Source: Jiangella mangrovi (GTDB lineage Bacteria; Actinomycetota; Actinomycetes; Jiangellales; Jiangellaceae). Taken from it: 64,000 nt of DNA. Numbering within the stretch: position 1 is the stretch's first letter; each line of letters begins with the position of its first letter. The translations under genes were made by a program, and so were the position numbers. Under the pieces are notes generated by a model. The model was not told the origin of the DNA, searched no databases, and worked only from the letters and a program-made list of their open reading frames with translations. Positions 6,350-61,632 of this stretch are shown here, piece by piece. Where the stretch lies: NCBI RefSeq assembly GCF_014204975.1, contig NZ_JACHMM010000001.1, positions 5,828,037-5,892,036 on the forward strand, given 5' to 3'.

Positions 6350-6655
6350 ATGCCGAGGGTTCACCGGTTCCAGAGCGCAGTTCCGAACCGGAGGGGGACG
6401 TTTCCCGGCGTCTTCGCCCTCGCCAACGGTCTGGCGACACACGGCATGCTCACCGCCGACGACCACGCGTGGCTGAAGACGGCGAACCGCCGGTCGTACG
6501 AACTGCACAGCGACCCGTCGACCACCGACCCCGCCTGCTACAGCCCGGACGTCAACCCCGGTGCGCGAGACTGGGTCCTTCAGCCGGAGGCGCCTGAGTC
6601 ATCAAGTTCCATGATCATCAAGGATCGCTGGTGTCCTGACGCCGTCGATCCTTGA
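6350..6655 (+). CDS. Small conserved actinobacterial protein, apparently truncated at the C-terminus
   Basis: A 101-residue reading frame. The segment from GVFALANGLATHGML through DPSTTDPACYSPDVNPGAR matches a pattern I recognise from uncharacterised actinobacterial proteins of about 150 residues or more, in which a DPSTVDP-VNPGA-type motif is followed by a further helical section. Here the sequence leaves the pattern after RDWVLQPEAPE and the last residues (SSSSMIIKDRWCPDAVDP) are translated from the hairpin repeat at 6611-6662, which also supplies the stop. It looks like a gene whose tail was lost when the repeat arrived. Function unknown. Confidence 0.55.
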   Translation: MPRVHRFQSAVPNRRGTFPGVFALANGLATHGMLTADDHAWLKTANRRSYELHSDPSTTDPACYSPDVNPGARDWVLQPEAPESSSSMIIKDRWCPDAVDP

Positions 6656-6662
6656 TGATCAT
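6611..6662. repeat. GATCATC-type hairpin repeat, copy 1
   Basis: Perfect 17-bp arms (ATGATCATCAAGGATCG at 6611-6627, complement at 6646-6662) around an 18-base loop whose GGTGTC and GACGCC can extend the stem. Arms and loop match the copy at 41490-41541. It lies between convergent genes and can act as a two-way terminator. Confidence 0.85.
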
Positions 6663-6699
6663 CGAAGTGGTGCCGAGGCCGGACGGGCAACGCCGCCCG

Positions 6700-7290
6700 T
6701 CAGATCCGCTTGTCGACGACGATCCAGTTCGTCTCCCAGGTCTCGCCGCCGTCGTCGGAGAATGCCTGCTCGAAGCGCGCCTTGTCCGGTCCCTGCCGGA
6801 TGATGCGGAAGCGCACCTCGATCGGGCGACCGTCGAGCTGGTCGGAGCCGTAGAACTCGCCCACGCCGTCGCGGAAGCCGCCGTACACGGCCGGCGTGAG
6901 CAGACCGTCGCGCATGTTGACGAAGGTCAGGCTCCAGCGGTCGGCCTGGGGCTCGTAGAGCCGCAGGTTGAGCGCCTCGATGCGCCCGGTCGTCCCCCGG
7001 ACACCCTCGACGTCGAACTCGACGACGTTCGCGCGGCGGTCCATCAGCGGGCGGACGACGCTGGTGCCCTCGAAGGTGAGCCACTGGTCCGCGGACTCCG
7101 ACAGCGGTTCGGCGAGCACCCGCACGCTCGAGCGCCAGGTGCCGATCTCCCAGTCGAAGCTGCGTTGCCCGTCCGCGACGGCGGCCTCGGCCTGGGACGG
7201 GTCCGGTGACGGCGCCGCCTCTCCCGGCGCCGCGCCGGCGGTCAGCGCGAGGAGCGACAGGCACGCGACCAGGATCCGCTTCTGTGGCAT
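6700..7290 (-). CDS. Secreted protein of unknown function
   Basis: A 196-residue protein with a clear Sec signal peptide (MPQKRILVACLSLLALTAGAAPGEAAP, cleavage probably near residue 26). The mature part is rich in Trp and Tyr (FDWEIGTWRS, RWSLTFVNMRDG, GGFRDGVGEFYGSD, WETNWIVVDKR) and resembles the beta-rich DUF1579-like group of small-molecule-binding folds; that comparison is from pattern only. It is divergent from an HxlR regulator with a 22-bp gap between start codons, so that regulator probably controls it. The long upstream extension of this frame is antisense to the regulator and is not used. Confidence 0.75.
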   Translation of the reverse strand: MPQKRILVACLSLLALTAGAAPGEAAPSPDPSQAEAAVADGQRSFDWEIGTWRSSVRVLAEPLSESADQWLTFEGTSVVRPLMDRRANVVEFDVEGVRGTTGRIEALNLRLYEPQADRWSLTFVNMRDGLLTPAVYGGFRDGVGEFYGSDQLDGRPIEVRFRIIRQGPDKARFEQAFSDDGGETWETNWIVVDKRI

Positions 7291-7312
7291 GGTGACCTTC
7301 GTGTGAGGGTTC

Positions 7313-7750
7313 ATGACCCGAATATCGGAGCGGAGCAGGCCCGTGATCAAGAACGCACTTTCAGGTAACCCCTCGCCGTCGCGCCCCAACCCGATCCCCG
7401 GCTGCCCCATGGCCGCGGCCTTCGCCGCGATCGGCGGGAAGTGGAAGCTGACGCTGCTGTACTGGCTCGCCCACGGCGAGTGCCATTTCGCCGGTCTGCG
7501 GCGCCGGGGTGCGCCGATCACTCCGAAGGTGCTGGCCGAGCAGCTGCGCGAGCTCGAGGCCGACGGGCTCGTCGAGCGGGTCGAGACGGGGCCAGTCCCG
7601 GCTCCGGTCATCTATCGGCTGACCCCGTACGGACGGACGGTGCTCCCCGTCGTCGAGCACGTCCGGGCCTGGGGCGAGGCGCACCTCGAACACACCCACG
7701 CCGAGACCGTTCCCGGCGAGGCCATGAGCTGCGCCGCCGCGATCGCCTAA
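7313..7750 (+). CDS. HxlR-family winged-helix transcriptional regulator
   Basis: A 145-residue MarR-like regulator of the HxlR group. The domain begins at CPMAAAFAAIGGKWKLTLLYWL and continues with HFAGLRRRGAPITPKVLAEQLRELEADGLVER and the wing PAPVIYRLTPYGRTVLPVV. The conserved cysteine at the start of the domain (GCPM) is often the thiol or aldehyde sensor in this family. Start is the ATG at 7313, 22 bp from the divergent secreted-protein gene, which is the likely target. The first 30 residues are less conserved, so an internal start is possible. Its stop codon overlaps that of the convergent methyltransferase. Confidence 0.9.
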   Translation: MTRISERSRPVIKNALSGNPSPSRPNPIPGCPMAAAFAAIGGKWKLTLLYWLAHGECHFAGLRRRGAPITPKVLAEQLRELEADGLVERVETGPVPAPVIYRLTPYGRTVLPVVEHVRAWGEAHLEHTHAETVPGEAMSCAAAIA

Positions 7751-8397
7751 GAGCGTTCCAGCCCGGCGATCCGCCACGTCAGACCGCCGCCCGCGAACGT
7801 CTGCCGCAGCCCGCGTGACCGCAGCACCGCCAGCATCGCCTCGGGCGGGTGGACGAACGCGCGGTACTCGCGACCCCGCAGCCGCATCATCAGGTTCGTC
7901 AGCCCGACGAACACCCGCCCGCCGACATGCCGCGGCGGGTGGCTGAACACGACCAGCCGCCCGGCGTGGTCGGCGACGGCGGCGAGCAGGCGCTCGTAGT
8001 CGGGGTAGCAGCAGACCACCCGGTGCAGGACGACGACGTCAGCGGCGGCCACCCCCGCGGGGTCGGCCGCGATGTCGTGCAGCCGCCGCGTCATCCGGCC
8101 GGTCAGACCCGCCTCGGCCGCCAGCCGCATGGCCTCCGCTTCGTACGACGGCGACAGCTCCAGCCCCGTCGTCGACGCCGCGCCGCGCTTGAGCAGCTCG
8201 AGCTGGATCTCGCCCACCCCGCCGCCGACCTCGAGCACCGTCGCGCCCTCGATCCCCCGCGACTCCAGGAAGGCGACCATCCGCGCCGCCGTCTTGTCCA
8301 GGCCGCGTGACCGGTACCTCCGCGCCGCGTGCCGCGCGAAACCCGGCGAGAACATCCGGTCGCAACCCCGCGGGTCGCAACACCCCCCGCCACTCAC
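7747..8397 (-). CDS. Class I SAM-dependent methyltransferase
   Basis: A 216-residue methyltransferase with the SAM-binding motif VLEVGGGVGEIQLELL, acidic loop TTGLELS and motif ADVVVLHRVVCCYPDYERLL. The HRVVCCYPD segment resembles magnesium-protoporphyrin/rebeccamycin-type small-molecule methyltransferases, but the substrate is not predictable. An unusual N-terminus rich in cysteine (SGGGCCDPRGCDR) could bind a metal. The GTG start overlaps the upstream PNPOx-like gene by 4 bp (GTGA), so the two are co-translated. Confidence 0.85.
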   Translation of the reverse strand: MSGGGCCDPRGCDRMFSPGFARHAARRYRSRGLDKTAARMVAFLESRGIEGATVLEVGGGVGEIQLELLKRGAASTTGLELSPSYEAEAMRLAAEAGLTGRMTRRLHDIAADPAGVAAADVVVLHRVVCCYPDYERLLAAVADHAGRLVVFSHPPRHVGGRVFVGLTNLMMRLRGREYRAFVHPPEAMLAVLRSRGLRQTFAGGGLTWRIAGLERS

Positions 8398-8870
8398 AGG
8401 GTCACCACCCGCCGGCTGTCGGCGCCGGTCCCGTACTCCGGGTCCCGCCCCCGGATGTGCACCGAGTGCTCCGTCACGCGCGCCCGCCAGAGCCGCAAGC
8501 GCTCCGGCGGGTAGAGCCACTCGACGGGGAACGGCTCCGGCCGCTCCGGGAACCGCGACCGGCACGCGATCGGAGCCGCCGCCGCGAGCTCGTCGTCGGG
8601 GACCCGCTCGGCCACTGCGAGCAGATAGACGGCGCGGACGTCGCTCCCGACCGGCTGGGTGGAGTCGTAGATCGCCATGCTCACGTTCGGCTGGCGTCCG
8701 ATGTTCAGCGAGTGGTGCGCCTCGGGCACCGACATCCAGTAGAAGGTGTCGTAGCCGTCGGGCGCGTAGTAGACCGGCGACACCCGCGCCCGGCCGTCGG
8801 GGTCGACGGTGCCCAGGCTCATGTACCGCGTGGTGTCGATGACCTGGCGAGCGGTGTCCTCGAGCGTCAT
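8394..8870 (-). CDS. Pyridoxamine 5'-phosphate oxidase-like FMN-binding protein
   Basis: A 158-residue split-barrel protein of the PNPOx-like superfamily. Recognisable segments are YMSLGTVDPDGRARVSPVYYAPDG, the first strands of the flavin barrel, and FYWMSVPEAHHSLNIGRQPNVSMAIYDS. Members bind FMN, F420 or haem and most are uncharacterised oxidoreductases. The ATG at 8870 begins the fold; the frame is open further upstream but without a good start. It is followed by the overlapping methyltransferase, so the pair may act on one compound. Confidence 0.85.
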   Translation of the reverse strand: MTLEDTARQVIDTTRYMSLGTVDPDGRARVSPVYYAPDGYDTFYWMSVPEAHHSLNIGRQPNVSMAIYDSTQPVGSDVRAVYLLAVAERVPDDELAAAAPIACRSRFPERPEPFPVEWLYPPERLRLWRARVTEHSVHIRGRDPEYGTGADSRRVVTL

Positions 8871-8970
8871 GGCGTCCTCGCAACAGTGCGTGCATGCCCG
8901 CCCGGTCATCCTTCCCGACGGCGTCAGCCCGCGGCAACCGTCTCCGCCCACGGCACGGCGAGCGACGGCG

Positions 8971-10023
8971 TCAGCGGCGGTGCCGCCGGGCCTCCAGCTC
9001 GGCGACGACGGCGCGCCGGTCACCCGCGCGCCGGGCCTCGCCCCGCGCCGCCTCGCGCCGCAGTTTGCGCCACCGCGCGAGCCGGTCCTCGTCGAGCTCT
9101 CCGTCGGCGACGGCGAGCAGCACGGCGCAGCCGGGCTCGGCGACGTGGCCGCAGTCGCGGAACCGGCATCGTCGCGCCAACGTCTCGACGTCCGCGAACG
9201 CGCCCGCGACGGCGGCGTCGTCAGCCACCAGCCCGACCGCGCGCAGCCCCGGCGTGTCGATGAGCACCCCGCGCCCGGGCAGGACGACGAGCTCGCGATG
9301 CGTCGTCGTGTGCCGGCCGCGGCCGTCGCGGGCCCGCACGGACCCCGTCGGCATGACGTCGACCCCCGCGATCAGGTTGGTGAGCGTCGACTTGCCCGCA
9401 CCCGACGGTCCCACGAGCGCCAGCGTCCGGCCGTTGCGCACGAGGGCGCCCAGCTCGTCGACGCCGTTGCCGCGCACCGAGCTGACCAGCATGATCTCGA
9501 CTCCGGGCGCGACCTCGGCGACCTCGTCGCGCATGCCGAGCGGGTCGGGGACGAGGTCGGACTTCGTCAGGACGATCACCGGCTGCGCGCCGCTCCCCCA
9601 CGCCAGGACCAGCAGCCGCTCGATGCGCCCGAGGTCGGGGTCGGGATCGAGGTGCTCGACGATGACCACCACGTCGACGTTCGCCGCGACGACCTGCCCC
9701 TCCGAGGTCCGGTCGGCGCTGTCGCGCACGATCGCCGTCCGCCGCGGCAGCAGCGCCTCGAGCGTGACCCGGTCGTCCGGCCAGTCGCGGACGGCGGTCC
9801 AGTCGCCGACGGCGGGCAGCGCCATGCGGTCGTCGGCGACGGCGCGCAGCACCTCGCCGCCGAACGAGGCCCGGACGGCCCCCATGCCGCCGGCCAGGTC
9901 GGCCGAGCCGCGGTCGACGCGGCACACCCGGGCGAGCCGGTGGGCGCCCCGGTACGGGTGGAAGGCCCGGCCTATCTCCGGCGTCCAGCCGAGGTCGAGC
10001 AGGCGTTGCTGGGAAGCAGACAT
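8971..10023 (-). CDS. rsgA: Ribosome small subunit-dependent GTPase A
   Basis: Circularly permuted GTPase that checks late 30S subunit assembly. The G motifs appear in permuted order: G4 TKSD at 153-156, G1 GPSGAGKST at 205-213 and G3 DTPG at 256-259. An OB-fold precedes them and a zinc knuckle with C286, C291, H293 and C299 follows. Length of 350 residues is normal. The ATG is preceded by AAGAAGG. A possible 18-codon ORF with a strong ribosome site lies just upstream on the same strand. Confidence 0.95.
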   Translation of the reverse strand: MSASQQRLLDLGWTPEIGRAFHPYRGAHRLARVCRVDRGSADLAGGMGAVRASFGGEVLRAVADDRMALPAVGDWTAVRDWPDDRVTLEALLPRRTAIVRDSADRTSEGQVVAANVDVVVIVEHLDPDPDLGRIERLLVLAWGSGAQPVIVLTKSDLVPDPLGMRDEVAEVAPGVEIMLVSSVRGNGVDELGALVRNGRTLALVGPSGAGKSTLTNLIAGVDVMPTGSVRARDGRGRHTTTHRELVVLPGRGVLIDTPGLRAVGLVADDAAVAGAFADVETLARRCRFRDCGHVAEPGCAVLLAVADGELDEDRLARWRKLRREAARGEARRAGDRRAVVAELEARRHRR

Positions 10024-10061
10024 GTGAGACCTTCTTCTGTGCGGCCTCACGCGCGACGGTG

Positions 10062-10118
10062 TCAGCCGCGGCGTGCTGGCCTGAGGGTACGGGAGAGAAC
10101 GGATCCGAACACGGTCAT
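10062..10118 (-). CDS. Possible 18-residue leader ORF upstream of rsgA
   Basis: An ATG with GAGGAGG nine bases upstream opens an 18-codon frame (MTVFGSVLSRTLRPARRG) ending 38 bp before the rsgA start. The ribosome site is stronger than that of rsgA. It may be a translated leader that governs rsgA, or a chance frame; the basic C-terminus is its only notable property. Confidence 0.35.
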   Translation of the reverse strand: MTVFGSVLSRTLRPARRG

Positions 10119-10165
10119 GGCCGCTCACCTCCTCGGTTGTCCACCGGCCAACGCTGCTGCCGAGG

Positions 10166-10174
10166 TTATCCACA
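10166..10174 (+). promoter_or_regulatory. Single perfect DnaA-box sequence
   Basis: TTATCCACA lies between the divergent rsgA leader and the acyl-CoA dehydrogenase gene. It is a full match to the DnaA box consensus. It is isolated, so it is not an origin, but it could be a DnaA regulatory site. Confidence 0.4.
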
Positions 10175-10226
10175 GGTGGCCGATTCGGGCCAGCGAATAA
10201 CCGGCGGGCCGGTCTACGGTGGGGGC

Positions 10227-11837
10227 GTGGGAGCGACACACGAGGTCACCAACCAGCCACCGCCGCTGTCGGGCTACGACGTGTTCGGCGCCGACGCCGC
10301 GCTCGTCGAGGCGTTCTCGCGCTACGGGAACGCCTCCGACCGCGTCGAGCTGGAGTCGCTGGGCCGGTTGGCGGGCTCGGCCGAGGCGCAGCGGTGGGCG
10401 CGCGAGGCCGACACCCACCACCCGGCGCTGCGCACCCACGACCGCTACGGCCATCGCGTCGACGAGGTCGACTTCCACCCGTCGTGGCACCGGCTCATGG
10501 CGACCGCCGTCGATCATCGCCTGCACGCCGGACCCTGGGTCGACCTTCCGGGGCGCGCGCATGCGACCCGGGCCGCGAAGTTCCTGGTGTGGAGCCAGGT
10601 CGAGGCCGCCCACCTGTGTCCCGTCTCCATGACCTACGCCGCCGTTCCCGCCCTGCGCACCGACCCCGCCATCAGCGAGGTCTGGGAGGGGCGGCTCAGT
10701 GCGTTCTACGACCCCGTCCTGCGCCCGCCTGCCGAGAAGGAGGGCTGCCTCGCCGGCATGGCGATGACGGAGAAGCAGGGCGGCTCCGACGTGCGCGCCA
10801 ACACGACGCGAGCCGACCCCGTCGACGGCTGGTATCGGCTGACGGGGCACAAGTGGTTCTGCTCCGCGCCCATGAACGACGTGTTCCTGGTGCTCGCCCA
10901 GGCGCCGGGCGGGCTGACCTGCTTCGTCCTCCCCCGCATCCTCGACGACGGTGCCCGCAACGGCCTGCGACTGCAGCGGCTGAAGGACAAGCTGGGCAAC
11001 CGCGCCAACGCCTCTGCGGAGGTCGAGTTCGACGGCGCGTTGGCGCAGCGGCTGGGCGCCGAGGGCCGCGGCGTCGCGACGATCATCGAGATGGTCGCCG
11101 CCACCCGGCTCGACTGCGTGCTCGGGTCGGCCTCACTGCTGCGCCGGGCCGTCGCCGAGGCGACCTGGCACGCCGCGCACCGGTCCGCGTTCGGCGCCCG
11201 GCTGGCCGACTCCGAGCTCATGCGCGCGGTGCTGGCCGACCTCGCGCTGGAGTCCGAGGCGGCGACGGCGCTGGCCATGCGGCTCGCGGCGTCGGTCGAC
11301 CACGCGGACGATCCTCAGGAGCAGGCGCTGCGGCGCATCGGGCTGCCGCTGGCGAAGTACTGGGTCTGCAAACGCACCCCGGCCGCCGTCGCCGAGGCGC
11401 TCGAGTGCCTGGGCGGCAACGGCTACGTCGAGGAGAGCGGGATGCCGCGGCTGTACCGCGAGGCGCCGCTGAACTCGATCTGGGAGGGTGCCGGGAACAT
11501 CCAGGCGCTCGACCTGCTGCGCGTGCTGGAACGCTCGCCCGAGGTCGCCCTCGCGTGGCGCGCCGAGGTCGAGGCGGCCAAGGGCCAGGACCGCCGCCTC
11601 GACGACGCGCTGTCTGCCTTCGACATCGAGGCGGCCGAGCCGGGGCAGGCGCGGGTGCTGGCCGGGCGCATGGCGGTGCTGCTGCAGGCGAGCCTGCTGG
11701 TCCGGTACGCGCCGCCCGCCGTCGCCGACGCGTTCTGCACGAGCCGGCTGGACGCGAGGCACGGGGTCTATGGCGCGCTGCCGGCCGGGCTCGACACCGA
11801 GGCGATCGTCCGCCGCGCCACCCCGGAGGTGCCGTGA
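10227..11837 (+). CDS. AidB-like acyl-CoA dehydrogenase
   Basis: A 536-residue flavoprotein of the acyl-CoA dehydrogenase family, with the extra length and GCLAGMAMTEKQGGSDVRANTT motif of the AidB group, which is induced by alkylation stress in E. coli and binds DNA. FAD-binding features include the TEKQGGSDVR loop, WFCSAPMNDVFLVLAQ and the C-terminal LNSIWEGAGNIQALDLLR. The GTG at 10227 is the first suitable start. A small cysteine-rich ORF overlaps its 3' end by 4 bp. Whether this is a dehydrogenase for an isovaleryl-type substrate or an AidB repair protein cannot be told. Confidence 0.9.
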   Translation: MGATHEVTNQPPPLSGYDVFGADAALVEAFSRYGNASDRVELESLGRLAGSAEAQRWAREADTHHPALRTHDRYGHRVDEVDFHPSWHRLMATAVDHRLHAGPWVDLPGRAHATRAAKFLVWSQVEAAHLCPVSMTYAAVPALRTDPAISEVWEGRLSAFYDPVLRPPAEKEGCLAGMAMTEKQGGSDVRANTTRADPVDGWYRLTGHKWFCSAPMNDVFLVLAQAPGGLTCFVLPRILDDGARNGLRLQRLKDKLGNRANASAEVEFDGALAQRLGAEGRGVATIIEMVAATRLDCVLGSASLLRRAVAEATWHAAHRSAFGARLADSELMRAVLADLALESEAATALAMRLAASVDHADDPQEQALRRIGLPLAKYWVCKRTPAAVAEALECLGGNGYVEESGMPRLYREAPLNSIWEGAGNIQALDLLRVLERSPEVALAWRAEVEAAKGQDRRLDDALSAFDIEAAEPGQARVLAGRMAVLLQASLLVRYAPPAVADAFCTSRLDARHGVYGALPAGLDTEAIVRRATPEVP

Positions 11838-11968: not shown

Positions 11969-12011
11969 TCGGTTGGCCGGGTTCGAGGTTCTGCCGGGGT
12001 GGTGGGTTGGT

Positions 12012-12147
12012 TCCCCGTCCCCCTGCTGCCCAGTCTCTTAGCCGCGTGACCGCGCCTCGAGTCCGACGATCGGGCGCTTCGCGCGGAGGGCGGACTTGAC
12101 CCGCGGTCCCGCGGCCAAGAACCTGGCAGCTATCAGGGGGACGGGGA
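12012..12147. repeat. 136-bp unit bounded by 14-bp inverted repeats
   Basis: TCCCCGTCCCCCTG at 12012-12025 is perfectly complementary to 12134-12147, and CTGCC lies near both inner edges. Smaller palindromes lie inside (AGTCCG...CGGACT). The layout is like a miniature inverted-repeat element but no target duplication is obvious. Confidence 0.45.
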
Positions 12148-12245
12148 GACCCTGGGCACACCTCGCCCTTCCGTGCCCGTTTCGTCCCGCTCTAGTGGCC
12201 TGTGGACAGCGATGATCATCAACGATCGCGTACATCACGACGATT

Positions 12246-12287
12246 ACCCGAGCCCCAACACGATTGCAGGCGTGTTGAGGCTCGGGT
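12246..12287. terminator. Hairpin with 16-bp arms
   Basis: ACCCGAGCCCCAACAC (12246-12261) pairs with 12272-12287 with one mismatch over a 10-base loop. No T run follows, as is common for actinobacterial terminators. Confidence 0.6.
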
Positions 12288-12325
12288 AAGCGTGGTGGGC
12301 GGCCCAAGAAACGCGGTCACGAGGC

Positions 12326-12373
12326 GTCGGGAGGGAGTTCTTCCCGCCATAGCGGGGACAAGTCCCTCCCGAC
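12326..12373. repeat. GGGAGGGA-type hairpin repeat, copy 1
   Basis: A 48-bp unit with 22-bp arms (three mismatches) and a CATA loop; the arms start GTCGGGAGGGA. The reverse complement of 51684-51731 matches it at 44 of 48 positions including the loop. Both copies lie between convergent genes, which suggests a shared two-way terminator sequence. Confidence 0.85.
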
Positions 12374-12434
12374 GACCGCAGCCAGGAAGCCACCACCCGC
12401 CCGTCGCCAGACTCCCAGCGCAACCACACGAACC

Positions 12435-12815: not shown

Positions 12816-12936
12816 GGCGGCGACCCTACACAGCCCACATTAAAACCTACTTGATCGCTAGGAAATCTCAGGATGCAAGACACAAGTGCCCAAATCGCGG
12901 ACAGCCCATTCGCGCCGAACCCCGGGACATGGCACG

Positions 12937-23850: not shown

Positions 23851-23922
23851 GTTGATCTTGGAGAATCCGCGGGATCAATCGGACATCTCACCCGGCGACT
23901 GCGCGGTTACTCCAAGATCAAC
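23851..23922. repeat. GATC-capped hairpin at the 3' end of the copper oxidase operon
   Basis: GTTGATCTTGGAG opens a 21-bp arm (23851-23871) that pairs with 23902-23922 with two mismatches over a 30-base loop. The stop codon of the minus-strand gene ending at 23918 lies in the right arm. The cap resembles the GATCATGGA family but the body differs. Confidence 0.75.
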
Positions 23923-24175
23923 TCTTGGTGGGGACGCGCGGGGCGGGGTCGGTGAAGAGGCGGTCGACCTCGGCGGCGCGGTGCGGGACGGCCCGCAGGC
24001 GGGCGAGCACCAGGCGCTCGACCAGCTCGTTCAGGGCGGACTCGACGACGGCGAGGTCCTGCGGTCCGAGGGTCCGGGCGCGACCGGCCAGCCGGGTCAG
24101 CTCGCGGCCGATGATCGCGTCGCCGCGCAGGCGCAGCCGCTCCACCGTCGGCGCCACGTCCGCGTCAGTGGCCAT
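23918..24175 (-). CDS. Small protein like the dimerisation domain of glutamyl-tRNA reductase
   Basis: An 85-residue helical protein. The stretch APTVERLRLRGDAIIGREL, GPQDLAVVESALNELVERLV and the following LRAVPHRAAEVDRLF has the same order and spacing as the C-terminal dimerisation domain of HemA, without the catalytic and NADPH domains. It overlaps the multicopper oxidase gene by 11 bp, so the two are translationally coupled. It might be an adaptor that binds GluTR or a stand-alone dimer with a new role. The resemblance is by eye and moderate. Confidence 0.65.
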   Translation of the reverse strand: MATDADVAPTVERLRLRGDAIIGRELTRLAGRARTLGPQDLAVVESALNELVERLVLARLRAVPHRAAEVDRLFTDPAPRVPTKS

Positions 24176-26506: not shown

Positions 26507-26510
26507 GTCG

Positions 26511-34227: not shown

Positions 34228-35270
34228 GGGAAGCGATCGAGCTGGAGGCCGGCGGCCGCATGGTCCGGGTCTCCAGCCCCAGCAAGGTCTACTTCCCCGA
34301 GCGCGGTCTCACCAAGCTCGACGTCGTGCAGTACTTCCTCGCCGTCGGCGACGGCATCCTCGGTGCGCTGCGCGAGCGGCCCACCACGCTCGAGCGCTGG
34401 CCGGGCGGCGTTTTCGAGGGCGCCAAGCTGTCGACCCGTCAGGACAACCGCGGCGACGCGTTCTACCAGAAGCGCATCCCCAAGGGCGCCCCCGACTACG
34501 TCGAGACCGCGACGGTCGCGTTCCCCAGCGGCCGCACCGCCGACGAGGTCTGCCCGACGGAGGTCGCGGTGGTCGCGTGGGCGGCCAACCTCGGCACCCT
34601 GACGTTCCACCCGTGGCCGGTCCGCCGGCCCGACGCCGAGCACCCCGACCAGCTGCGCATCGACCTCGACCCGCAGCCCGGCACCGACTACTCCGACGCC
34701 GTCGTCGTCGCCCACGAGGCTCGCGCGCTGCTGCAGGAGCTCGGCATGGACGGCTTCCCGAAGACGTCCGGCGGCCGCGGCATGCACCTGTACGTGCCGG
34801 TCCGGCCCGAGTGGGACTTCGTCCAGGCCCGCCGCGCCGTCATCGCCTTCGGCCGCGCGCTGGCGAGACGGATGCCCGACCAGGTGACCGTCGACTGGTG
34901 GAAGGAGGAGCGGGGCGAGCGCATCTTCATCGACTTCAACCAGATGGCCCGCGACCGCACCATCGCGTCGGCCTACTCCGTCCGGCCCCGCCCGCGGGCG
35001 ACGGTGTCCGCTCCGCTCGCGTGGGACGAGGTCAACGACGCCCGGCCCGAGGACTTCGACATCACGACCATGCCGGCCCGGTTCGCCGCGGTGGGCGACC
35101 TGCACGCCGGGGTCGCCGAGGTGGCGTACTCGCTCGAGCCGCTGCTCGAGCTGGCCGCCCGCGACGAGAAGGACCACGGCCTCGGCGACCTGCCGTATCC
35201 GCCGGAGTACCCGAAGATGCCCGGCGAGCCGCTGCGGGTGCAGCCCTCCCGCCGCGCGACCTTCGACTAG
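34224..35270 (+). CDS. LigD-polymerase-type primase/polymerase (PolDom)
   Basis: A 348-residue archaeo-eukaryotic-primase-like enzyme, the free-standing form of the LigD polymerase domain (Prim-PolC type in mycobacteria). Metal-binding carboxylates are expected in LRIDLDPQPGTDY; the nucleotide site includes TSGGRGMHLYVPV and RIFIDFNQMARDRTIASAYSVRPRPRATVSAPL. With LigC two genes upstream it can fill and seal short gaps. It starts at ATG 34224 overlapping the previous stop. Followed by two hairpin repeats. Confidence 0.9.
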   Translation: MREAIELEAGGRMVRVSSPSKVYFPERGLTKLDVVQYFLAVGDGILGALRERPTTLERWPGGVFEGAKLSTRQDNRGDAFYQKRIPKGAPDYVETATVAFPSGRTADEVCPTEVAVVAWAANLGTLTFHPWPVRRPDAEHPDQLRIDLDPQPGTDYSDAVVVAHEARALLQELGMDGFPKTSGGRGMHLYVPVRPEWDFVQARRAVIAFGRALARRMPDQVTVDWWKEERGERIFIDFNQMARDRTIASAYSVRPRPRATVSAPLAWDEVNDARPEDFDITTMPARFAAVGDLHAGVAEVAYSLEPLLELAARDEKDHGLGDLPYPPEYPKMPGEPLRVQPSRRATFD

Positions 35271-35312
35271 GGCGTGGCTGACGGATCAATGGGTCCGCGG
35301 CCCCGGATCCGG

Positions 35313-35373
35313 GTTGATCATGGAAAAAGGCGGGTTTCCAGGGCCGTGGCAGCCGCACTTCTCCATGATCAAC
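35313..35373. repeat. GATCATGGA-type hairpin repeat, copy 1
   Basis: Arms begin GTTGATCATGGA and pair over about 21 bp with three mismatches. The whole unit, and about 25 bp on its left containing CCCCGGATCC, aligns with the reverse complement of the 45.9-kb copy, including the CCAG-GCC loop. It lies at the 3' end of the polymerase gene. Confidence 0.85.
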
Positions 35374-35410
35374 AACAGATGGCCACGTCATGCGCGTGCG
35401 GAGCACCCCA

Positions 35411-35499
35411 CGCGAGTGAGGACGTCCGCCGATGACAGTCGCCGTTCCGATGATCATGTTCCCTCACGGCGCCACAGCGACCGCGAGGGAACATGATCA
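35411..35499. repeat. GATCATGT-type hairpin repeat with conserved flank, copy 1
   Basis: Hairpin arms TGATCATGTTCCCTCACGG (35451-35469) and 35481-35499 differ at one position; the loop includes GCGCCACAGCG. The 40 bp to the left (CGCGAGTGAGGACG, CCGCCGATGAC) are also shared with the inverted copy at 45.66 kb, so the repeat unit is nearly 90 bp. Confidence 0.85.
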
Positions 35500-35577
35500 C
35501 GAACAGGTGGGAAGTGCGTGTCGATCCGTCAGACACGCTCCAGGGAACACGGCCATCGTGCAGGGGGTTTTCCAGGT

Positions 35578-41473: not shown

Positions 41474-41489
41474 GTGTCGTTCCTTCCCC

Positions 41490-41541
41490 GTGATCATCCA
41501 GGATCGGTGGGGTCATGACACCACCGATCCTGGATGACCAC
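41490..41541. repeat. GATCATC-type hairpin repeat, copy 2
   Basis: Arms GTGATCATCCAGGATCGGTGG (first 20 bases given by 41490-41509) and 41521-41541 pair over 21 bp with one mismatch; loop GGTCATGACA. It matches the 6.6-kb copy in arms and loop. It begins 16 bp after the DUF4349 stop, in a convergent gap. Confidence 0.85.
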
Positions 41542-41953
41542 GCCGGCCGGTCGCGGACCGCTGATCCGTCAGACACACCTGAGAACGTGTGGGAAAGTGA
41601 GGCGGCATGCCGGAATGACGGGGCGAGGTGGTTGATGCCAGGTCCTGGCGCCCCTGACCAGTCGTGTCGTGTGGCTCGAGGGTGAGAGGTGTGGGATCGC
41701 TGCGCCGACGATGTGAGATCGCTGTCGTGGACGCGACAGTGCTGCCGCGGCGTTGGCGCAGTATGGCCACAGCGATCGCTGCACGATGACCCAGAACGGC
41801 CCGTCACGCCACGCCAGCGTGTCGCTGGCTCGGCTCGGCCACGGTGTGGTGACACTGCACCCGGTGGGTGGCCGAACTGTCGCCTGGCAACAGCACCCAC
41901 GTCTGGCAGCAGCGCCACACCGTCGACGCCTCGCCCGCACCGCCGGACACGCC
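41542..41953. other. Unexplained non-coding stretch between DUF4349 and hemE
   Basis: 412 bp without a convincing gene on either strand. It contains GATCCGTCAGACAC (41563-41576, also at 35523-35536), three occurrences of GATCGCTG, a small hairpin CTGTCG...CGACAG (41722-41739) and a 12-bp palindrome CAGCGATCGCTG (41770-41781). It could be an old insertion-element remnant or a structured RNA. Confidence 0.55.
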
Positions 41954-45550: not shown

Positions 45551-45658
45551 GATCGCGGTTCCTTCCTCGGGGGTGCGCCTCGTGGGCGCCTCTCACCCCT
45601 GCTACGAACCCCGCTACCCGATTTCGACACCGCGCCCCGAGATTCTTCCCCTCCGCTC

Positions 45659-45757
45659 ATGATCATGTCCCCTCGCGGGCGCTGTGGCGCCGCGAAGGCA
45701 CATGATCATCCGAACAACGACGGTCATCGGCGGAACCGCGGCCCGCGTCCTCACTCG
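45659..45757. repeat. GATCATGT-type hairpin repeat with conserved flank, copy 2 (inverted)
   Basis: Arms at 45659-45678 and 45690-45709 begin ATGATCATGT and pair over 20 bp with two mismatches. On the minus strand the flank at 45710-45757 contains CGCGAGTGAGGACG and CCGCCGATGAC as in the 35.4-kb copy, with about 11 extra bases. Confidence 0.83.
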
Positions 45758-45898
45758 CGTTTCGCTCACCTCACCCGCTCCAGGGCCGCATCGCAGACCC
45801 TGGAGCGGCGATGTTCGGCTCTCAGGCCGAAGGCCACCGACACGATGCGGCCGCAGGGGCGTCCGTCAGACACGCTCCAGGCCGCGTCAGTCTTTGTC

Positions 45899-45954
45899 GA
45901 TCATGGAAAAGGGCGGGTTCCGCGGCGCTGGAGACCCGCTTTTCTCCATGATCA
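45899..45954. repeat. GATCATGGA-type hairpin repeat, copy 2 (inverted)
   Basis: Arms GATCATGGAAAAGGGCGGG and its partner at 45932-45954 pair with a one-base bulge. Its reverse complement aligns end to end with 35313-35373 and on into CCCCGGATCC and GCTGACGG. It lies at the 3' end of the FAD-oxidoreductase gene. Confidence 0.83.
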
Positions 45955-45997
45955 AGAAGGATCCGGGGTCGCGGGACCACCCGGGTCGCGCGAACCG

Positions 45998-47431
45998 TCA
46001 GCTGAGGCCGTCGACGTAGCCGGAGCGGGCGAACCGCTCGCGCGCCACCGTCCAGGCGTACCGGTCGAAGCGGCCGTCGTCGCGGATGGCGCCGACGGCG
46101 CCGTAGGCCATGAGCAGCGCCTGGTCGATGTTCTCGAGGACGAACAGGCCCTGCCGGCCCAGCGTGACGACGCGGCGGATCATGCGGGCCCAGTTGTCGA
46201 CGTCGCTGAGGTCGTGCTCGTAGCCCACCCGGTAGATGGGGTACACCTGGCCGATGCGGCGCGACTCGACGTGCACCCGGTTGACCTTGGGCAGCCCGGT
46301 GAGGCCCAGGGTCTCGTCGACGAGGTCGGCGAGCGACTCGTCGTCGAGGCCCCACACGTCGTCGGTCATGGAGCACGGGATCTCGGCGCACAGCACGGAC
46401 CGGTCGGCGGGGTCCGACGGGTTGGCGCGGTAGTTGGCCGGCTCGGAGATGCGGATGACCGGCGTGCGCGGGTCGGGGATGTCGTGGGAGTCGTGCGGAC
46501 TCCACCGTCCACCCTGGTGCACGACGTAGACCAGCAGCATGGCGCGGTAGCGCAGCCGCGCCGACGACTCGATGGACGTCAGCGACGGCGCCGGGCGGGC
46601 GATGCGCGCGAGCACCGGCAGCGGCAGCGTCGAGAACACCAGCCCGCCGGTGATGAGGTCGCCGTCCTGCGTGCTGACCTCGACCTCGTCCTCGGTGACG
46701 CGAACGCGGTCGACCTCGGCCTCGCAGCGGATCTCGACCCCGGCCGTGACGGCGGCGTCGGCGAGCGCCTCGACGAGCTGCCCGAACCCGGTGCGCGGGT
46801 AGTAGTAGCCGCCACCCGTGGCCGACGCGCCACCGGCGCCGGGCTTGCCGCCCTTGCGGCCGCGGCGCAGTGCCCGGGCGGCGACCCGCCAGGTGCCGAG
46901 CCGGTCGGTCTGCCGGCGGGCCTGGTCGGCGCTGATGCGATCGCCCGGCAGACCCCACTGCTTCTCGGCGAGCGGGCCGTAGACCGACTCGTACAGCGCC
47001 GGCCCGACGCGCGTGCGCACCAGGCCGCCGTAGGTCTCGGACTCCTCGCGCCGGAACTTCGACACCGCGGAGTCGCGGGCGACCTTCGCGAGGAACGACG
47101 GCGGCAGCTTGCGGGCGGCCTCCTCGGCGCGCAGCGGCAGGCCGAGCCACTGGTCGCCGACGCGGATGCGGCTGGACCGCCGTCGCTGCTGGAGGTCGTC
47201 GCCGAGCAGGGCGCGGAGGTCGTGCAGGATGGCCGGCGGCGTGTTGGGGTCGAGCCGGTGCGAGCCCTGGTCGACGCGCACCCCGCCCACCTCGAACGAC
47301 GCGGCCAGGCCGCCCACGTGGTCGGCGCGCTCGAGCAGCGTCACCTTCATGCCCCGCTGGGCAGCGCGCCAGGCGGCGGCGAGGCCCGCGGGCCCCGCGC
47401 CGATCACGATGAGATCGTACGAGCCGGTCAT
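45998..47431 (-). CDS. FAD-dependent amine-oxidase/desaturase-like oxidoreductase
   Basis: A 477-residue flavoprotein with the dinucleotide motif YDLIVIGAGPAGLAAAWRAAQRG and GG motif DHVGGLAASFEVGGVRVDQGSHRL. It resembles protoporphyrinogen-oxidase-like and polyprenyl/carotenoid-modifying enzymes (RTGFGQLVEALADAAVTAGVEIRCEAEV), but HemY is encoded elsewhere, so another substrate is likely. Alone on its strand. ATG start 99 bp from the divergent AlkD-like gene. Confidence 0.85.
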   Translation of the reverse strand: MTGSYDLIVIGAGPAGLAAAWRAAQRGMKVTLLERADHVGGLAASFEVGGVRVDQGSHRLDPNTPPAILHDLRALLGDDLQQRRRSSRIRVGDQWLGLPLRAEEAARKLPPSFLAKVARDSAVSKFRREESETYGGLVRTRVGPALYESVYGPLAEKQWGLPGDRISADQARRQTDRLGTWRVAARALRRGRKGGKPGAGGASATGGGYYYPRTGFGQLVEALADAAVTAGVEIRCEAEVDRVRVTEDEVEVSTQDGDLITGGLVFSTLPLPVLARIARPAPSLTSIESSARLRYRAMLLVYVVHQGGRWSPHDSHDIPDPRTPVIRISEPANYRANPSDPADRSVLCAEIPCSMTDDVWGLDDESLADLVDETLGLTGLPKVNRVHVESRRIGQVYPIYRVGYEHDLSDVDNWARMIRRVVTLGRQGLFVLENIDQALLMAYGAVGAIRDDGRFDRYAWTVARERFARSGYVDGLS

Positions 47432-51618: not shown

Positions 51619-51683
51619 CCGCCGCTCACCGACGGCGGGAGTCGGGCGACGGGTGCGCGGCCAGCGGGCTGGCTGCTGCGGTC

Positions 51684-51731
51684 GTCGGGAGGGACTTTTC
51701 CTCGCTATGGCGGGGAGAACTCCCTCCTGAC
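51684..51731. repeat. GGGAGGGA-type hairpin repeat, copy 2 (inverted)
   Basis: Arms at 51684-51705 and 51710-51731 start GTCGGGAGGGA and pair over 22 bp; loop TATG. The reverse complement matches the 12.3-kb copy at 44 of 48 bases. It lies between the convergent fadB and AI-2E-type permease genes. Confidence 0.85.
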
Positions 51732-55493: not shown

Positions 55494-55547
55494 CGGCGTG
55501 CGTGCGATCCTGAGTGGGTAAGCCTTCCTGCGGAGGAGGCGATCCAC

Positions 55548-56024: not shown

Positions 56025-56029
56025 CCCTC

Positions 56030-56129
56030 TTCCTGGTTTGGTGTCACGTTCTGGTCTGCCGTAACGCTGCGAGCGTGATTTCAACGCTCCTGCGTGACGC
56101 CAGACCAGGACGTGACACCAGACCAGGAG
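56030..56129. repeat. 100-bp hairpin with internally duplicated arms
   Basis: The arms 56030-56067 and 56092-56129 pair over about 38 bp with a handful of mismatches; an inner stem GAGCGT/ACGCTC (56071-56076 and 56084-56089) continues it. Each arm is itself two direct copies of an 18-bp unit like CCTGGTCTGGTGTCACGT. It lies between convergent genes and encodes the last residues of the minus-strand one. Confidence 0.8.
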
Positions 56130-57093
56130 GGGAAGGGCTCCGGGCGCACCGGGCAACGGTGGATCGCCGCCGCGAAACGCGCGGCCAGCTCCCTGCGGTG
56201 GTATCGGGCCAGCTCCCAGCCGTAGCGGACCACCTCGAGTCCGGCCGCGCGCAGCTGCCACTCGCGCTCCTGCTGCGCGGCGACCACTCGCCCGGCATCG
56301 AGGCGGCCGTCGTACTTCAGCGACCCGTCGGCTTCGAACACCAGCCAGCGATCCGCCAGCAGGTGGTCGACGCGGTAGCTGCGGCCGCCGGCCTCGACCC
56401 AGGCGTTCGACTCCGGCACCGGCAGCCCCTTCTCGAGGAACGTCAGCCGGCCGAGGGTCTCCAGCGGGCTCTCCGCAAGCCCGTCGGCGTGGTCGATCAC
56501 CCAGTCGGCGCCGCGGCTGCCGGGCCAGCCCGCCTGCAGGTCCAACGTTGCTCGAAGGTCAGCGCGGGTGGTGCCCGAGGCCAACACGGCATCGGCGACG
56601 ACGAGCGCGTCGGCCCGCGGCGCCGTCCGCGCGATGTCGACGACGGTGCGCGCCACGGCGGTCACCCGGCAGCCGTCGTGGAAACGACACTGGTCGGGCG
56701 GCAGCGCCGCCACCCGAACGGCGCCGTGGCGGCTGTTCACGGCCGATCCGCCACGTTCCCGCTGGTACACCAGAGGCCGACGAGGCGGAGGGCTGATGGT
56801 GGGCAGGCCGTAGGCGGCCACTGCGGACCAGCCGGCCGCGAACGCCAATGGCCCGCAGGCGAGGGTGAATGCGCGGGACTGCAGGCCGAACGCGGTCCAC
56901 TCATCCGCCGCCGCGTACCCGGCCGCGCTTGCATAGGCGCCCCGCGCGAGGCGCACCAACGCGCCTGCGCGGGCGAGCCGGGCCAGCGGGCGCGGGTGAT
57001 ACCGCGAGCGGCAGCTTCGGCGACGCTGAAGACGCCGTGGCCCTTGCGGAGCAGGAGGGCGACGTCGGCGGGGAGGGCTGGCAGGAGGCTCAC
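56081..57093 (-). pseudogene. DUF559/AbiEi-like endonuclease-domain protein, frameshifted
   Basis: The natural start is the GTG at 57093 (MSLLPALPADVALLLRKGHGVFSVAEAAARGITRAR). That frame then goes wrong, while the adjoining frame continues with LARLARAGALVRLARGAYASA and reaches the stop at 56081. One missing C near 56985-56990 explains it. The C-terminal part has the PD-(D/E)xK nuclease pattern of DUF559, [21 protein letters not shown]. The last residues [12 protein letters not shown] come from the duplicated hairpin. Homologues are linked to AbiE-type toxin-antitoxin antitoxins. Sequencing error would be the alternative to a true pseudogene. Confidence 0.75.
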
Positions 57094-57202
57094 GCCGTCG
57101 AGCCGATCAGACCGGCACTCGCGCCGCCAGGCCGATTCGCCGAAATGTGGACGACGCGGCGCCGCCGGCCGGCCTGTGGACGACAGGCCGGCCGGCGGTA
57201 CC

Positions 57203-60001
<2,799 letters not shown>

Positions 60002-60094
60002 GTCTGATCCCCAACCTCTCGCATCCGTGGCGTTCCCGCACATCGTCGCGCACCGCTGACGGTGGGGCGCGCTGAGGCTCGCCTAACTGAAGTC

Positions 60095-60108
60095 TCTTGA
60101 CTTCAAGA
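60095..60108. promoter_or_regulatory. Palindrome in the aconitase promoter region
   Basis: TCTTGA and TCAAGA are separated by two bases in the gap between divergent acnA and a lipoprotein gene; TATC extends one side. It overlaps a TTGACT that could be a -35. An aconitase repressor operator is likely by position. Confidence 0.5.
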
Positions 60109-60174
60109 TATCATGGCCGGATTTTCTTTGGGCCCGCTGTCACATTCGGCCTTCGAAAACCACCCATAGGAAGT

Positions 60175-61314
60175 GTGAAGAGATGGATGCTGCTGGGTTT
60201 GGTGGTCGTGGTGCTGGCCGGCTGCGCGGGTGAGGACGTGCGGCCGGTGGCCGATGTCGTTCGTGAGGCGCCGACGGGGACGCCCGTGGTTCCGGAGCCG
60301 CCGCCGCGGGAGGTCGCGGGGGCGGTCTCACCGGGGCGGGCGGTGCTGGTGGGTGCCGACGGCGTCAGCGGGCTGTCGCCGCTGGCGGCCGAGGCGTCAC
60401 TGGTCACGCCGTCGGTGGTCGTGACGGTGTCAGCTGCGGGTGAATGGGGGCTCGGTCCGCCCGACGGCGACCGGCTCGCGCTGGCCTGGCTGGTCCGGCT
60501 CGCCGCTCCCCCGCCGCTCGCGCCGGCGGTGGACGGGTCGCTGCCGGGCGACGACGACCTCGCGCCCCGCGACGCGTCGACCACGCTCTGGCTCGACACC
60601 GGGTCCGAACGGTTGCCGGTGACGGCGCCCGACGGCTCCGATCCGACGGTGGCGCGGTGCGACGAGCTGCCCTGCCGTGGGCCCGATCCGGGGACGTTCC
60701 TGCTGGTGGCGGAGGTCGAGGCCTCGGCACGGCCGGTACTGGTCGCGACCGTCGACGGGGTCGACCAGCGGCTCGACCTGCACACCGGCGAGGTGACGTC
60801 GACGGTGTCGCAGGTCGGCCCCGAGCGGGCGGGTGCCGTGCCGGTGGCCGCGCCGGCCTGGCCGCAGCGGTCGCTGCCAGTGCGCTCGGAGGCGCAGCTC
60901 GAGGCCGAGTTCGGCACAGGCGCCGGCGACCTCACCCGCGGCGGTCTCGAGGTCGGCTACGGCGGCCGGGTCGCCGAGGCGTTCCTGTCACCGTTCGACC
61001 GCGTCGAGGGCTGGGCGCCGCCGGGCCACGCCTGGCTGGTGCTGCGGGTCGAGGACACCTTCCGCCAGCCGGCGCTGACCTCCTGGCGGGCCGAGCTCGA
61101 CGCTGCGGCGAGCTGGACCCTCACCCACGACGCCGGGGTGGCAACGCCCGCGTATCCGCCCTCACCCGCGGAGGTCGTCACCTTCCTCATCCCCGACGAT
61201 GTCCGCTCGGTGACGCTCGCCTACAGGCCCGTGGGCACGGTCGGCCTGCCACCGGACGCCCACCACGAGTTCCGGGCGCCCGAGCCGCTCACGGCCGAGA
61301 TCACACTCCCATGA
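60175..61314 (+). CDS. Lipoprotein of unknown function
   Basis: A 379-residue exported protein with lipobox VVLAGC (Cys17) after a short signal (MKRWMLLGLVVVVLAG). A Pro-rich linker follows. The mature part is beta-rich with a Cys pair (ARCDELPCRGPDPG) and has SFTDR-like patterns but no family I recognise. GTG start at 60175 has AGGAAG close by; ATG 60187 would leave too short a signal. It is divergent from acnA with 173 bp between, and is followed by hairpins. Confidence 0.72.
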   Translation: MKRWMLLGLVVVVLAGCAGEDVRPVADVVREAPTGTPVVPEPPPREVAGAVSPGRAVLVGADGVSGLSPLAAEASLVTPSVVVTVSAAGEWGLGPPDGDRLALAWLVRLAAPPPLAPAVDGSLPGDDDLAPRDASTTLWLDTGSERLPVTAPDGSDPTVARCDELPCRGPDPGTFLLVAEVEASARPVLVATVDGVDQRLDLHTGEVTSTVSQVGPERAGAVPVAAPAWPQRSLPVRSEAQLEAEFGTGAGDLTRGGLEVGYGGRVAEAFLSPFDRVEGWAPPGHAWLVLRVEDTFRQPALTSWRAELDAAASWTLTHDAGVATPAYPPSPAEVVTFLIPDDVRSVTLAYRPVGTVGLPPDAHHEFRAPEPLTAEITLP

Positions 61315-61434
61315 CCACCTCGATGCTCAGGCCGCCTCGGGCAGGGCGGGGTCGCCCACCGTGTCCGGGCGGCCGCGGGCTCGGGCGTGCGTGGCGGTCC
61401 CGGGCTCCAGCCGACCCGGCCCAGGTCCGATGCG

Positions 61435-61481
61435 GGCGTGTAGACACCGGCGCCAACTGTTGCGCTCAGCGTCTACACCCC
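61435..61481. terminator. Hairpin after the lipoprotein gene
   Basis: GTGTAGAC (61438-61445) pairs with GTCTACAC (61471-61478), with GGG/CCC extending it. The loop holds its own palindrome CAACTGTTG. It is about 120 bp after the lipoprotein stop. Confidence 0.5.
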
Positions 61482-61583
61482 ACGGGACGGCGCACTGGCA
61501 CGGGACGGGACGGCGCACCCGAGATCACACCCACCGACCACCCCCGCCGCGGCCACCCCTCCGGCGGCGGGGGTCTCCGCTCC

Positions 61584-61632
61584 ATGATCATGTCCGTTCG
61601 CGGCGCGCAGCCGACCGCGAGGGAACACGATC
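61584..61632. repeat. GATCATGT-type hairpin repeat, copy 3
   Basis: Arms at 61584-61604 and 61611-61632 share GATCATGT...TTCGCGG and the right-hand CCGCGAGGGAACA with the copies at 35.45 and 45.66 kb. Its left arm includes the stop codon and its body the last dozen codons of the acyltransferase gene. Confidence 0.78.

What the first reader, a model, noticed from the sequence alone, without database searches (positions are those of the whole stretch)
6611..61632. Dispersed families of long intergenic hairpins at gene 3' ends
Nine hairpins belong to four homologous families: GATCATC type at 6611 and 41490, GATCATGGA type at 35313 and 45899, GATCATGT type at 35451, 45659 and 61584, and GGGAGGGA type at 12326 and 51684. 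Similarity covers both arms and the loops, and in two pairs also the flanks, so common descent is clear and chance convergence of terminators is unlikely. All sit at gene 3' ends, six between convergent genes, none between divergent ones. Copies occur in both orientations. Function as two-way terminators and spread by an unseen enzyme are inferences. High density (about one per 7 kb) suggests hundreds of copies in the genome.
Basis: partly seen in the sequence, partly recalled or inferred. Interest (0 to 1): 0.8.

Follow-up and report, generated by a model that had tools for sequence, protein, structure and literature searches.

The report
Mobile hairpin repeats at gene ends
In soil bacteria of the genus Jiangella, families of small mobile DNA pieces that fold into long hairpins have repeatedly landed just behind genes, and for one class of them the reason seems to be that their landing sequence is almost missing inside genes but survives at gene ends.

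Summary
The nine hairpins are real, fall into the four families named, and were returned at 128 places in the 7.16-Mb genome. The genus is Jiangella. They belong to a larger system of at least ten hairpin families, many joined into ordered composites. In an even 400-kb sample, repeats occupy 14 of 36 convergent, 7 of 97 same-direction and 1 of 65 divergent gaps. They are insertions: at 12 of 17 loci read, a congener has a gap of 40 bp or less where this genome has 83-778 bp. Window 35267-35543 holds an exact 273-bp insert with IS5-type ends at a CTAG. A sister genome holds five identical 1,017-bp IS5-family elements with nearly the same ends and CTAG on both sides. CTAG is 110-fold depleted inside genes yet forms 19 of 352 stop codons, which explains landing at stops for that class. 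The class covers only 19 of 66 A/B/C copies and none of 89 copies of seven other families; their enzyme is unknown. Terminator function is untested; U-tracts are missing. A new variant of the REP/MITE kind.

The parts
6607..6666 (.). Family A hairpin (GATCATC type) between a tRNA gene's 3' end (6261) and the 3' end of gene 6700-7410 (-)
12014..12154 (+). M1 module (about 150-bp imperfect hairpin, one end of the composite M element)
12200..12308 (+). M2 module of composite M, holding the 12236-12297 hairpin
12325..12374 (+). Family D hairpin (GGGAGGGA type), a module of composite M
23851..23922 (.). Family O hairpin (TTGATCTTGGAG arms, recognised by eye); its right end carries the stop codon of called gene 23918-24175 (-)
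   Evidence: similar hairpins at one orthologous locus in L096 and L098
29969..30018 (.).
35267..35543 (.). IS5-type MITE: CTAG (with the TAG stop of the upstream gene), end 35271-35287, B and C hairpins, end 35523-35539, then CCAG; exact 273-bp insert absent from G003
35313..35374 (-). Family B hairpin (GATCATGGA type) inside that MITE
35450..35501 (-). Family C hairpin (GATCATGT type) inside that MITE
41474..41953 (.). 480-bp stretch between convergent genes; in 11 of 11 congeners the two gene ends match in one uninterrupted piece, and they overlap in the five read
41489..41542 (.). Family A hairpin in that stretch; a single IS5-type end follows at 41563-41579
45658..45709 (+). Family C hairpin
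45859..45880 (-). Single IS5-type end followed by CCAG, between the C and B hairpins (same layout as L042)
45895..45955 (+). Family B hairpin behind gene 45998-47431 (-)
51684..51731 (-). Family D hairpin with M-like flank at 51631-51683; G001 has 21 bp in this gap
56030..56128 (-). Family H module (overlaps the called 3' end of gene 56081-56665)
61437..61478 (+). Family I hairpin
61584..61635 (-). Family C hairpin; called gene 61588-62805 (-) reads through it and stops in its outer TGATCA

Best explanation
They are parts of non-autonomous, MITE-like mobile elements of Jiangella: inserts without called genes, from single hairpins of about 50 bp to composites of 514-703 bp, spread in trans. Shown: homology, copy number, species-specific insertion, fixed module order, and for one class the ends, the target (CTAG) and a matching IS5-family element in a sister genome. 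Inferred: that this IS5-type transposase, or a close relative, moves that class, and that other enzymes move the rest. Location at 3' ends has two likely causes. First, for the IS5-type class, the target CTAG is almost absent from coding sequence but survives at TAG stop codons, so insertions fall there. Second (inferred), copies that would split promoters or operons are lost by selection. Once in place the hairpin makes very stable RNA 3' structures in both directions and probably serves as an I-shaped bidirectional terminator or as a 3' end that resists degradation (inferred, about 50 percent).
For: Copy number: 128 places returned. Position: conv 14/36, tandem 7/97, div 1/65 (p 8e-7 conv vs div; 4e-5 conv vs tandem); 37 of 43 tandem-gap blocks nearer the stop, medians 37 vs 148 nt. 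Insertion: a congener with a gap of 40 bp or less at 12 of 17 loci read; window 41474 uninterrupted in 11 of 11 congeners. Exact insert at 35267-35543 against G003 with inverted ends, CTAG on the left and CCAG on the right. Five identical 1,017-bp IS copies with CTAG at both sides, 5 of 5, IS5 family by Pfam and NCBIfam. Ten short elements with these ends: CTAG left 7 of 10, right 8 of 10. CTAG: 8 internal in 359 kb of called CDS against 883 expected from base composition, 19 of 352 stops. IS5 of E. coli duplicates YTAR, CTAG in 15 of 24 (PMC5493358, passages). Module order M1+ M2+ D+ K- M1- kept in 25 of 27 gaps. No called gene in 10 of 10 M composites and 5 of 5 short elements. Co-variation clear in A and F.
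Against: IS5-type ends lie within 250 bp of only 19 of 66 A/B/C copies and 0 of 89 D, E, F, H, I, K and M1 copies (G/N, J and M2 not tested), so most families lack a known mover, and no target duplication was resolved for M or the solo hairpins. The own genome shows no IS-sized pair of these ends at up to one mismatch. MITE and IS ends differ at the third base. Six of 20 regions fetched to study the ends (L307-L312, four of them from the own genome) gave no clean pair and are not in the 7-of-10 and 8-of-10 counts. Co-variation is weak in B and C and absent in D. No U-tract. At 5 of 17 loci no near-empty congener was seen, and the family C hairpin at L044 is shared by five of seven regions read (the other two lacked the left flank), so some insertions are old.
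Confidence: 0.8

Rival explanations
1. Ancestral bidirectional terminators inherited vertically; similarity between copies comes from gene conversion.
For: 3'-end position and very stable hairpins; co-variation in A and F; the L044 hairpin and the M modules at the window 11838 locus are shared with congeners.
Against: At 12 of 17 loci read some congener has a gap of 40 bp or less, and others carry a different hairpin in the same gap.
Confidence: 0.07
2. REP elements moved by RAYT (Y1) transposases.
For: Same position bias and stop-codon donation are published for REPs (PMC3733652, sections 6 and 15).
Against: No Y1_Tnp (PF01797) match in 12 of 12 Jiangella genomes while the control rang in 5 of 14 named genomes; helices of 20-26 pairs and no unpaired GTAG/CGTC tag.
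Confidence: 0.03
3. Location is due only to purifying selection; there is no target preference.
For: Divergent gaps are nearly free of copies (1 of 65); the same argument is made for pneumococcal repeats (PMC3049150, passages). M, D and solo hairpins have no known target.
Against: For elements with IS5-type ends, CTAG flanks most copies and 5 of 15 have it on a stop codon, close to what the CTAG map predicts (19 of 56 CTAG sites outside element-bearing gaps are stops).
Confidence: 0.45
4. The arms stay complementary through quasi-palindrome (template-switch) repair and not through selection for a terminator.
For: Arms change together in A and F; no U-tract; D shows no excess co-variation.
Against: No direct test was made here.
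Confidence: 0.35

Closest known systems
REP elements, GTAG and CGTC superfamilies (Di Nocera et al. 2013, PMC3733652; abstract and sections 6 and 15 read)
   Same: Multi-copy palindromes next to ORF 3' ends, mostly between convergent or same-direction genes; GTAG termini often supply the TAG stop codon.
   Different: REPs are 20-40 bp (CGTC stems 8-9 bp) with an unpaired tag, and the GTAG type is linked to RAYT; here helices have 20-26 pairs, ends are paired, and no Y1 transposase was found in 12 Jiangella genomes.
Pneumococcal BOX, RUP and SPRITE (PMC3049150, passages read)
   Same: Short interspersed, modular (BOX) repeats enriched between convergent genes; SPRITE proposed as co-opted terminators; elements insert into one another (PMC10969869, passages).
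   Different: SPRITE has a long U-rich tract and no resolved empty site; here no U-tract, high GC, more families, and near-empty sites in congeners.
MITEs with CTAG target, such as MITEPsy1 (PMC3189936, passages read)
   Same: TIR of about 17-18 bp, 4-bp CTAG duplication, related IS.
   Different: The Jiangella versions carry one or two strong internal hairpins and often lie at TAG stop codons, in genomes with extreme CTAG depletion in genes.
U-less (I-shaped) terminators of GC-rich actinobacteria (PMC8269248, passages read)
   Same: Strong stem-loop without U-tract at gene ends; bidirectional 3' ends are reported in Streptomyces clavuligerus.
   Different: Those are mapped RNA ends; here the hairpins are repeat families with no RNA evidence.

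Membership tests
MITE (IS5-type) | Terminal inverted repeats matching an autonomous element | tested here: met
   For the TIR class only: ends GG(G/C)GTGTCTGA(C/T)GGAT against IS ends GGAGTGTCTGACGGATC. 19 of 66 A/B/C copies have such an end within 250 bp; 0 of 89 copies of seven other families.
MITE (IS5-type) | Target site duplication | tested here: met
   CTAG at both sides of 5 of 5 IS copies; left 7 of 10, right 8 of 10 short elements; the G003 site without the insert reads CTAGGGAAC, and here the two sides read CTAG and CCAG. Not resolved for M or solo hairpins.
MITE (IS5-type) | Autonomous partner present | tested here: inconclusive
   Present in G014; no IS-sized pair of ends in the own genome at up to one mismatch.
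MITE (IS5-type) | No coding capacity | tested here: met
   My gene caller finds none in 10 of 10 M composites and 5 of 5 short elements, and calls one in the 1,017-bp IS. Longest open frames of 52-192 codons have negative coding scores, but so has the longest one of the IS.
REP (GTAG/CGTC) | RAYT / Y1 transposase in the genome (GTAG type) | tested here: not met
   PF01797: 0 of 12 Jiangella genomes.
REP (GTAG/CGTC) | Short stem with unpaired terminal tag | tested here: not met
   Alignments A1-A4 and folds show paired ends and helices of 20-26 pairs. Family D begins with CGTC, but there it pairs with GACG (12325-12374).
SPRITE-like element / canonical intrinsic terminator | U-rich tract after the hairpin | tested here: not met
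   T fraction 0.06-0.13 in the 10 nt after either arm (genome 0.136); no run of four T in 254 flanks of A, B, C, D, F and M1.
I-shaped terminator | RNA 3' ends at the hairpin | not testable with these tools
   No transcriptome available.
Any Rfam family | Match above gathering score | tested here: not met
   Window: four tRNAs and Ms_IGR-7, none at the hairpins; L024, L042, L052: only a TPP riboswitch in L024, outside the elements.

The most novel reading that the evidence does not exclude
A genome-wide turnover of terminators by mobile DNA: extreme CTAG depletion in genes turns the ordinary IS5 target into a landing pad at TAG stop codons, successive waves of hairpin elements land there in each Jiangella species, and some are kept as two-way transcription terminators for convergent genes that had none, so that the same gene pair ends in unrelated hairpins in different species.
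Probability: 0.3. Interest if true: 0.72.

Novelty: new variant of a known kind. Interest (0 to 1): 0.5.

Why it matters
It offers a simple, checkable reason why mobile palindromes gather at gene 3' ends: the target tetranucleotide is almost missing inside genes but survives at stop codons. It also gives orthologous gene pairs that carry no hairpin, or different hairpins, in sister species, a natural experiment for whether mobile hairpins become terminators. The REP and SPRITE texts seen here raise that question and leave it as a proposal.

Tried and rejected
TGATCA as target: A, B and C arms all end in TGATCA, which reads as two convergent stop codons (TGA/TCA), and the G008 empty site for L052 reads GGCTGATCACGCC. 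I dropped it as a general target: 71 of 118 TGATCA sites lie inside called genes, family O has similar arms without the palindrome, and only 6 of 66 copies use it as a stop codon.

REP/RAYT origin was dropped. Search for composite M elsewhere: no match in 72,556 plasmid or 50,697 phage records. D arms gave no excess co-variation. Paper searches on Jiangella with repeats or insertion sequences listed nothing on this system among the rows shown (listings only, of very many papers); searches on CTAG with stop codons and insertion listed no title or abstract that states this link, so I know of none in this library, which lacks most subscription journals.

Limits: genes were called by my own codon-usage script, not by a standard annotator; of 369 genes in the 400-kb sample 17 show no stop codon (cut at stretch ends), leaving 352 stops. 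BLAST counts are lower bounds (at most 40 candidates scored per search; 2 per genome). The 22 occupied gaps of the 400-kb sample scale to about 390 in the genome, a rough figure. The gap of 40 bp or less is measured between extrapolated BLAST ends. Five of the 17 loci were read in one congener only (L024, L059, L048, window 51619, window 61315). Of the 14 loci for which flanks were prepared, five were searched (the fifth right flank was cut short). Of nine loci searched, three (L013, L039, L056) were not followed up; of seven window loci, one (45551-45997) was not, because its two flanks lie apart in relatives. In one search one of 20 fetched regions (L088) lacked the left flank; two of 20 (L224, L225). 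Copies below a score threshold were dropped before the counts (A 38 to 23 and to 22, M1 42 to 31, I 7 to 5, K 12 to 11; B, C, D, E, F and H kept whole). The co-variation alignments hold 21 of 23 A, 23 of 28 B, 14 of 15 C and 21 of 28 D copies, and for F three own and three congener copies. Family O was recognised by eye and not counted; J was left out of the occupancy count. The shuffles keep single-base composition only.
Full report
WHAT WAS CHECKED. The window is G000:C1:5828037-5892036 of a single-contig 7.16-Mb genome. Seven of the nine hairpins are among the 25 inverted repeats shown, and the other two were read. RNA folds beat all shuffles for nine of ten hairpins, 61584-61635 being weak. 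Own-genome BLAST returned 29, 40, 19 and 40 distinct places for the GATCATC (A), GATCATGGA (B), GATCATGT (C) and GGGAGGGA (D) types, 128 in all, as lower bounds.

A LARGER SYSTEM. An evenly spaced sample of 20 x 20 kb plus the window showed at least ten families in intergenic DNA: A-D, E, F, G/N, H, I, J, K and the modules M1 and M2. In 1.26 Mb (the sample, the window and 40 stretches chosen because they hold hits) many are joined. M1+ M2+ D+ K- M1- forms a composite with two inverted 150-bp hairpins at its ends; ten composites with both strong M1 ends span 514-703 bp, and module order and strand fit this scheme in 25 of 27 gaps with two or more of these modules. So the D hairpins at 12325 and 51684 are parts or remnants of M. 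A+B-M1' and B..C are further combinations.

POSITION. In the 400-kb sample without the window, gaps of 30 bp or more are occupied in 14 of 36 convergent, 7 of 97 same-direction and 1 of 65 divergent cases (Fisher p 8e-7 for convergent against divergent, 4e-5 against same-direction). In same-direction gaps over all 1.26 Mb, 37 of 43 blocks lie nearer the upstream stop (medians 37 and 148 nt; p 1.6e-6). Hairpin counts made without families agree: strong hairpins (score 14 or more) in 14 of 43 convergent, 17 of 118 same-direction and 1 of 75 divergent gaps here (window included), none after shuffling; convergent 5 of 13 in G008, 5 of 16 in G002 and 0 of 8 in the outgroup G011. G002 goes against the pattern with 4 of 32 divergent gaps.

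INSERTIONS, NOT RELICS. Gene-end flanks of the own genome were searched in congeners and 17 loci were read. At 12 of 17 at least one congener has a gap of 40 bp or less where the own gap is 83-778 bp: for instance 778 bp here against 3 bp in G001 and G006 (L037 locus), and the 480-bp gap at 41474-41953, where the gene ends overlap in the five relatives read and match in one uninterrupted piece in 11 of 11. Other congeners carry a different hairpin in the same gap (L037 locus: a family A-like hairpin in G005, an IS5-type MITE in a 165-bp gap in G008, another hairpin in G003). At five loci (L063, L059, L044, window 11838, window 61315) no gap of 40 bp or less was seen; the family C hairpin at L044 is present in five of seven congener regions read (the other two lacked the left flank), and window 11838 shows M modules in G006 and D/K-like modules in G008, so some insertions are old.

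ENDS, TARGET AND A LIKELY ENZYME FOR ONE CLASS. Against G003 the gap at 35271 differs by 273 bp: CGACTAG then GGAACACC in G003, and here CTAG, an end GGCGTGGCTGACGGATC, hairpins B and C, the inverse end GATCCGTCAGACACGCT and CCAG before GGAACAC. Ten short elements with ends GGGGTGTCTGA(C/T)GGAT or close to it in G003, G008 and G014 (nine of about 159 bp, one with a 48-bp core) carry CTAG on the left in 7 and on the right in 8. Six further regions fetched for the same purpose (L307-L312) gave no clean pair and are not counted. G014 holds five identical 1,017-bp copies with ends GGAGTGTCTGACGGATC and CTAG on both sides in 5 of 5; their two reading frames match DUF4096 and DDE_Tnp_1 in Pfam and the IS5 model of NCBIfam. 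DNA relatives, mostly at 60-80 percent identity and partial, occur in 344 plasmid records, 220 of them Streptomyces. IS5 of E. coli duplicates YTAR, CTAG in 15 of 24 recorded sites (PMC5493358, passages), and a CTAG MITE is known in Pseudomonas syringae (PMC3189936, passages).

WHY STOP CODONS. In the 400-kb sample CTAG occurs 8 times inside 359 kb of called genes (883 expected from base composition), forms 19 of 352 stop codons, and occurs 29 times in gaps without elements. G008 (3 in genes, 11 at stops, 17 in gaps) and G002 (11, 8, 21) are similar; the outgroup G011 shows it more mildly (36, 19, 38; 521 expected in genes), so the depletion is not peculiar to Jiangella. About a third of available sites (19 of 56) are therefore stop codons, and 5 of 15 IS and MITE copies have their CTAG on a stop codon (L293, L300, L301, L303, L249). 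For this class target choice alone can account for the 3'-end position. It is a partial answer: IS5-type ends lie within 250 bp of 5 of 23 A, 7 of 28 B and 7 of 15 C copies and of none of 89 D, E, F, H, I, K and M1 copies, against 5 of 606 gaps without A, B or C. The own genome has 32 such ends at up to one mismatch, and those that face each other are at most 394 bp apart, so no intact partner with these ends was seen here.

FUNCTION. The hairpins are very stable (-23 to -50 kcal/mol), but no run of four T follows either arm in 254 flanks, so they are not canonical intrinsic terminators; Streptomyces clavuligerus has mapped 3' ends at U-less hairpins (PMC8269248, passages). Paired changes are well above shuffles for A (29 cells against 14.0, 0 of 500) and F, including the same gene junction in three congeners (12 against 4.3, 0 of 500), weak for B (13 against 8.5, 19 of 500) and C (5 against 2.2, 18 of 500) and absent for D (7 against 8.0). 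Related copies inflate such counts, and template-switch repair would give the same sign. I therefore hold terminator use at about 50 percent.

RANGE. A 401-bp A+B+M1' query matched 12 of 12 Jiangella genomes, 3 of 10 other genomes of the family (weakly, at the A hairpin) and 0 of 274 others of the class (two candidates scored per genome). The M composite matched 8 of 9 Jiangella genomes and 0 of 4 others; neither plasmid nor phage records match it.

PLACE AMONG KNOWN THINGS. It works like REPs and pneumococcal SPRITE/RUP/BOX repeats, which share the position bias (PMC3733652 sections 6 and 15; PMC3049150 passages). It is not a GTAG/CGTC REP: no Y1 transposase in 12 of 12 genomes and no unpaired tag. 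The TIR class is an IS5-type MITE; the other families are MITE-like only. What I did not see in print (listings only) is the link between CTAG depletion, TAG stop codons and 3'-end landing.

Noticed in passing
window 1008-1125 (+): Rfam match to the actinobacterial sRNA Ms_IGR-7 (53.6 bits).
   Followed up: no
L024:15158-15250 (-): TPP riboswitch in the own genome.
   Followed up: no
L293:1517-2533, L294, L297, L298, L299: Five identical 1,017-bp IS5-family copies in one Jiangella genome, a sign of very recent transposition.
   Followed up: yes
L047:3170-3275, L052:9981-10086, L056:19005-19109 and others: A and B hairpins are fused through a shared TGATCATGG; how such fusions arise is unexplained.
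   Followed up: partly
L288 (G004:C246): At the locus of window 11838 a relative has a tandem array of a short unit with repeated ATGACC (by eye).
   Followed up: no
L280, L281, L282 against window 35271: Three congeners have what looks by eye like a small reverse-strand gene in this gap, where the own genome has a MITE.
   Followed up: no
L017:8967-9584: Family G/N: three similar hairpin units in tandem within one gap.
   Followed up: no
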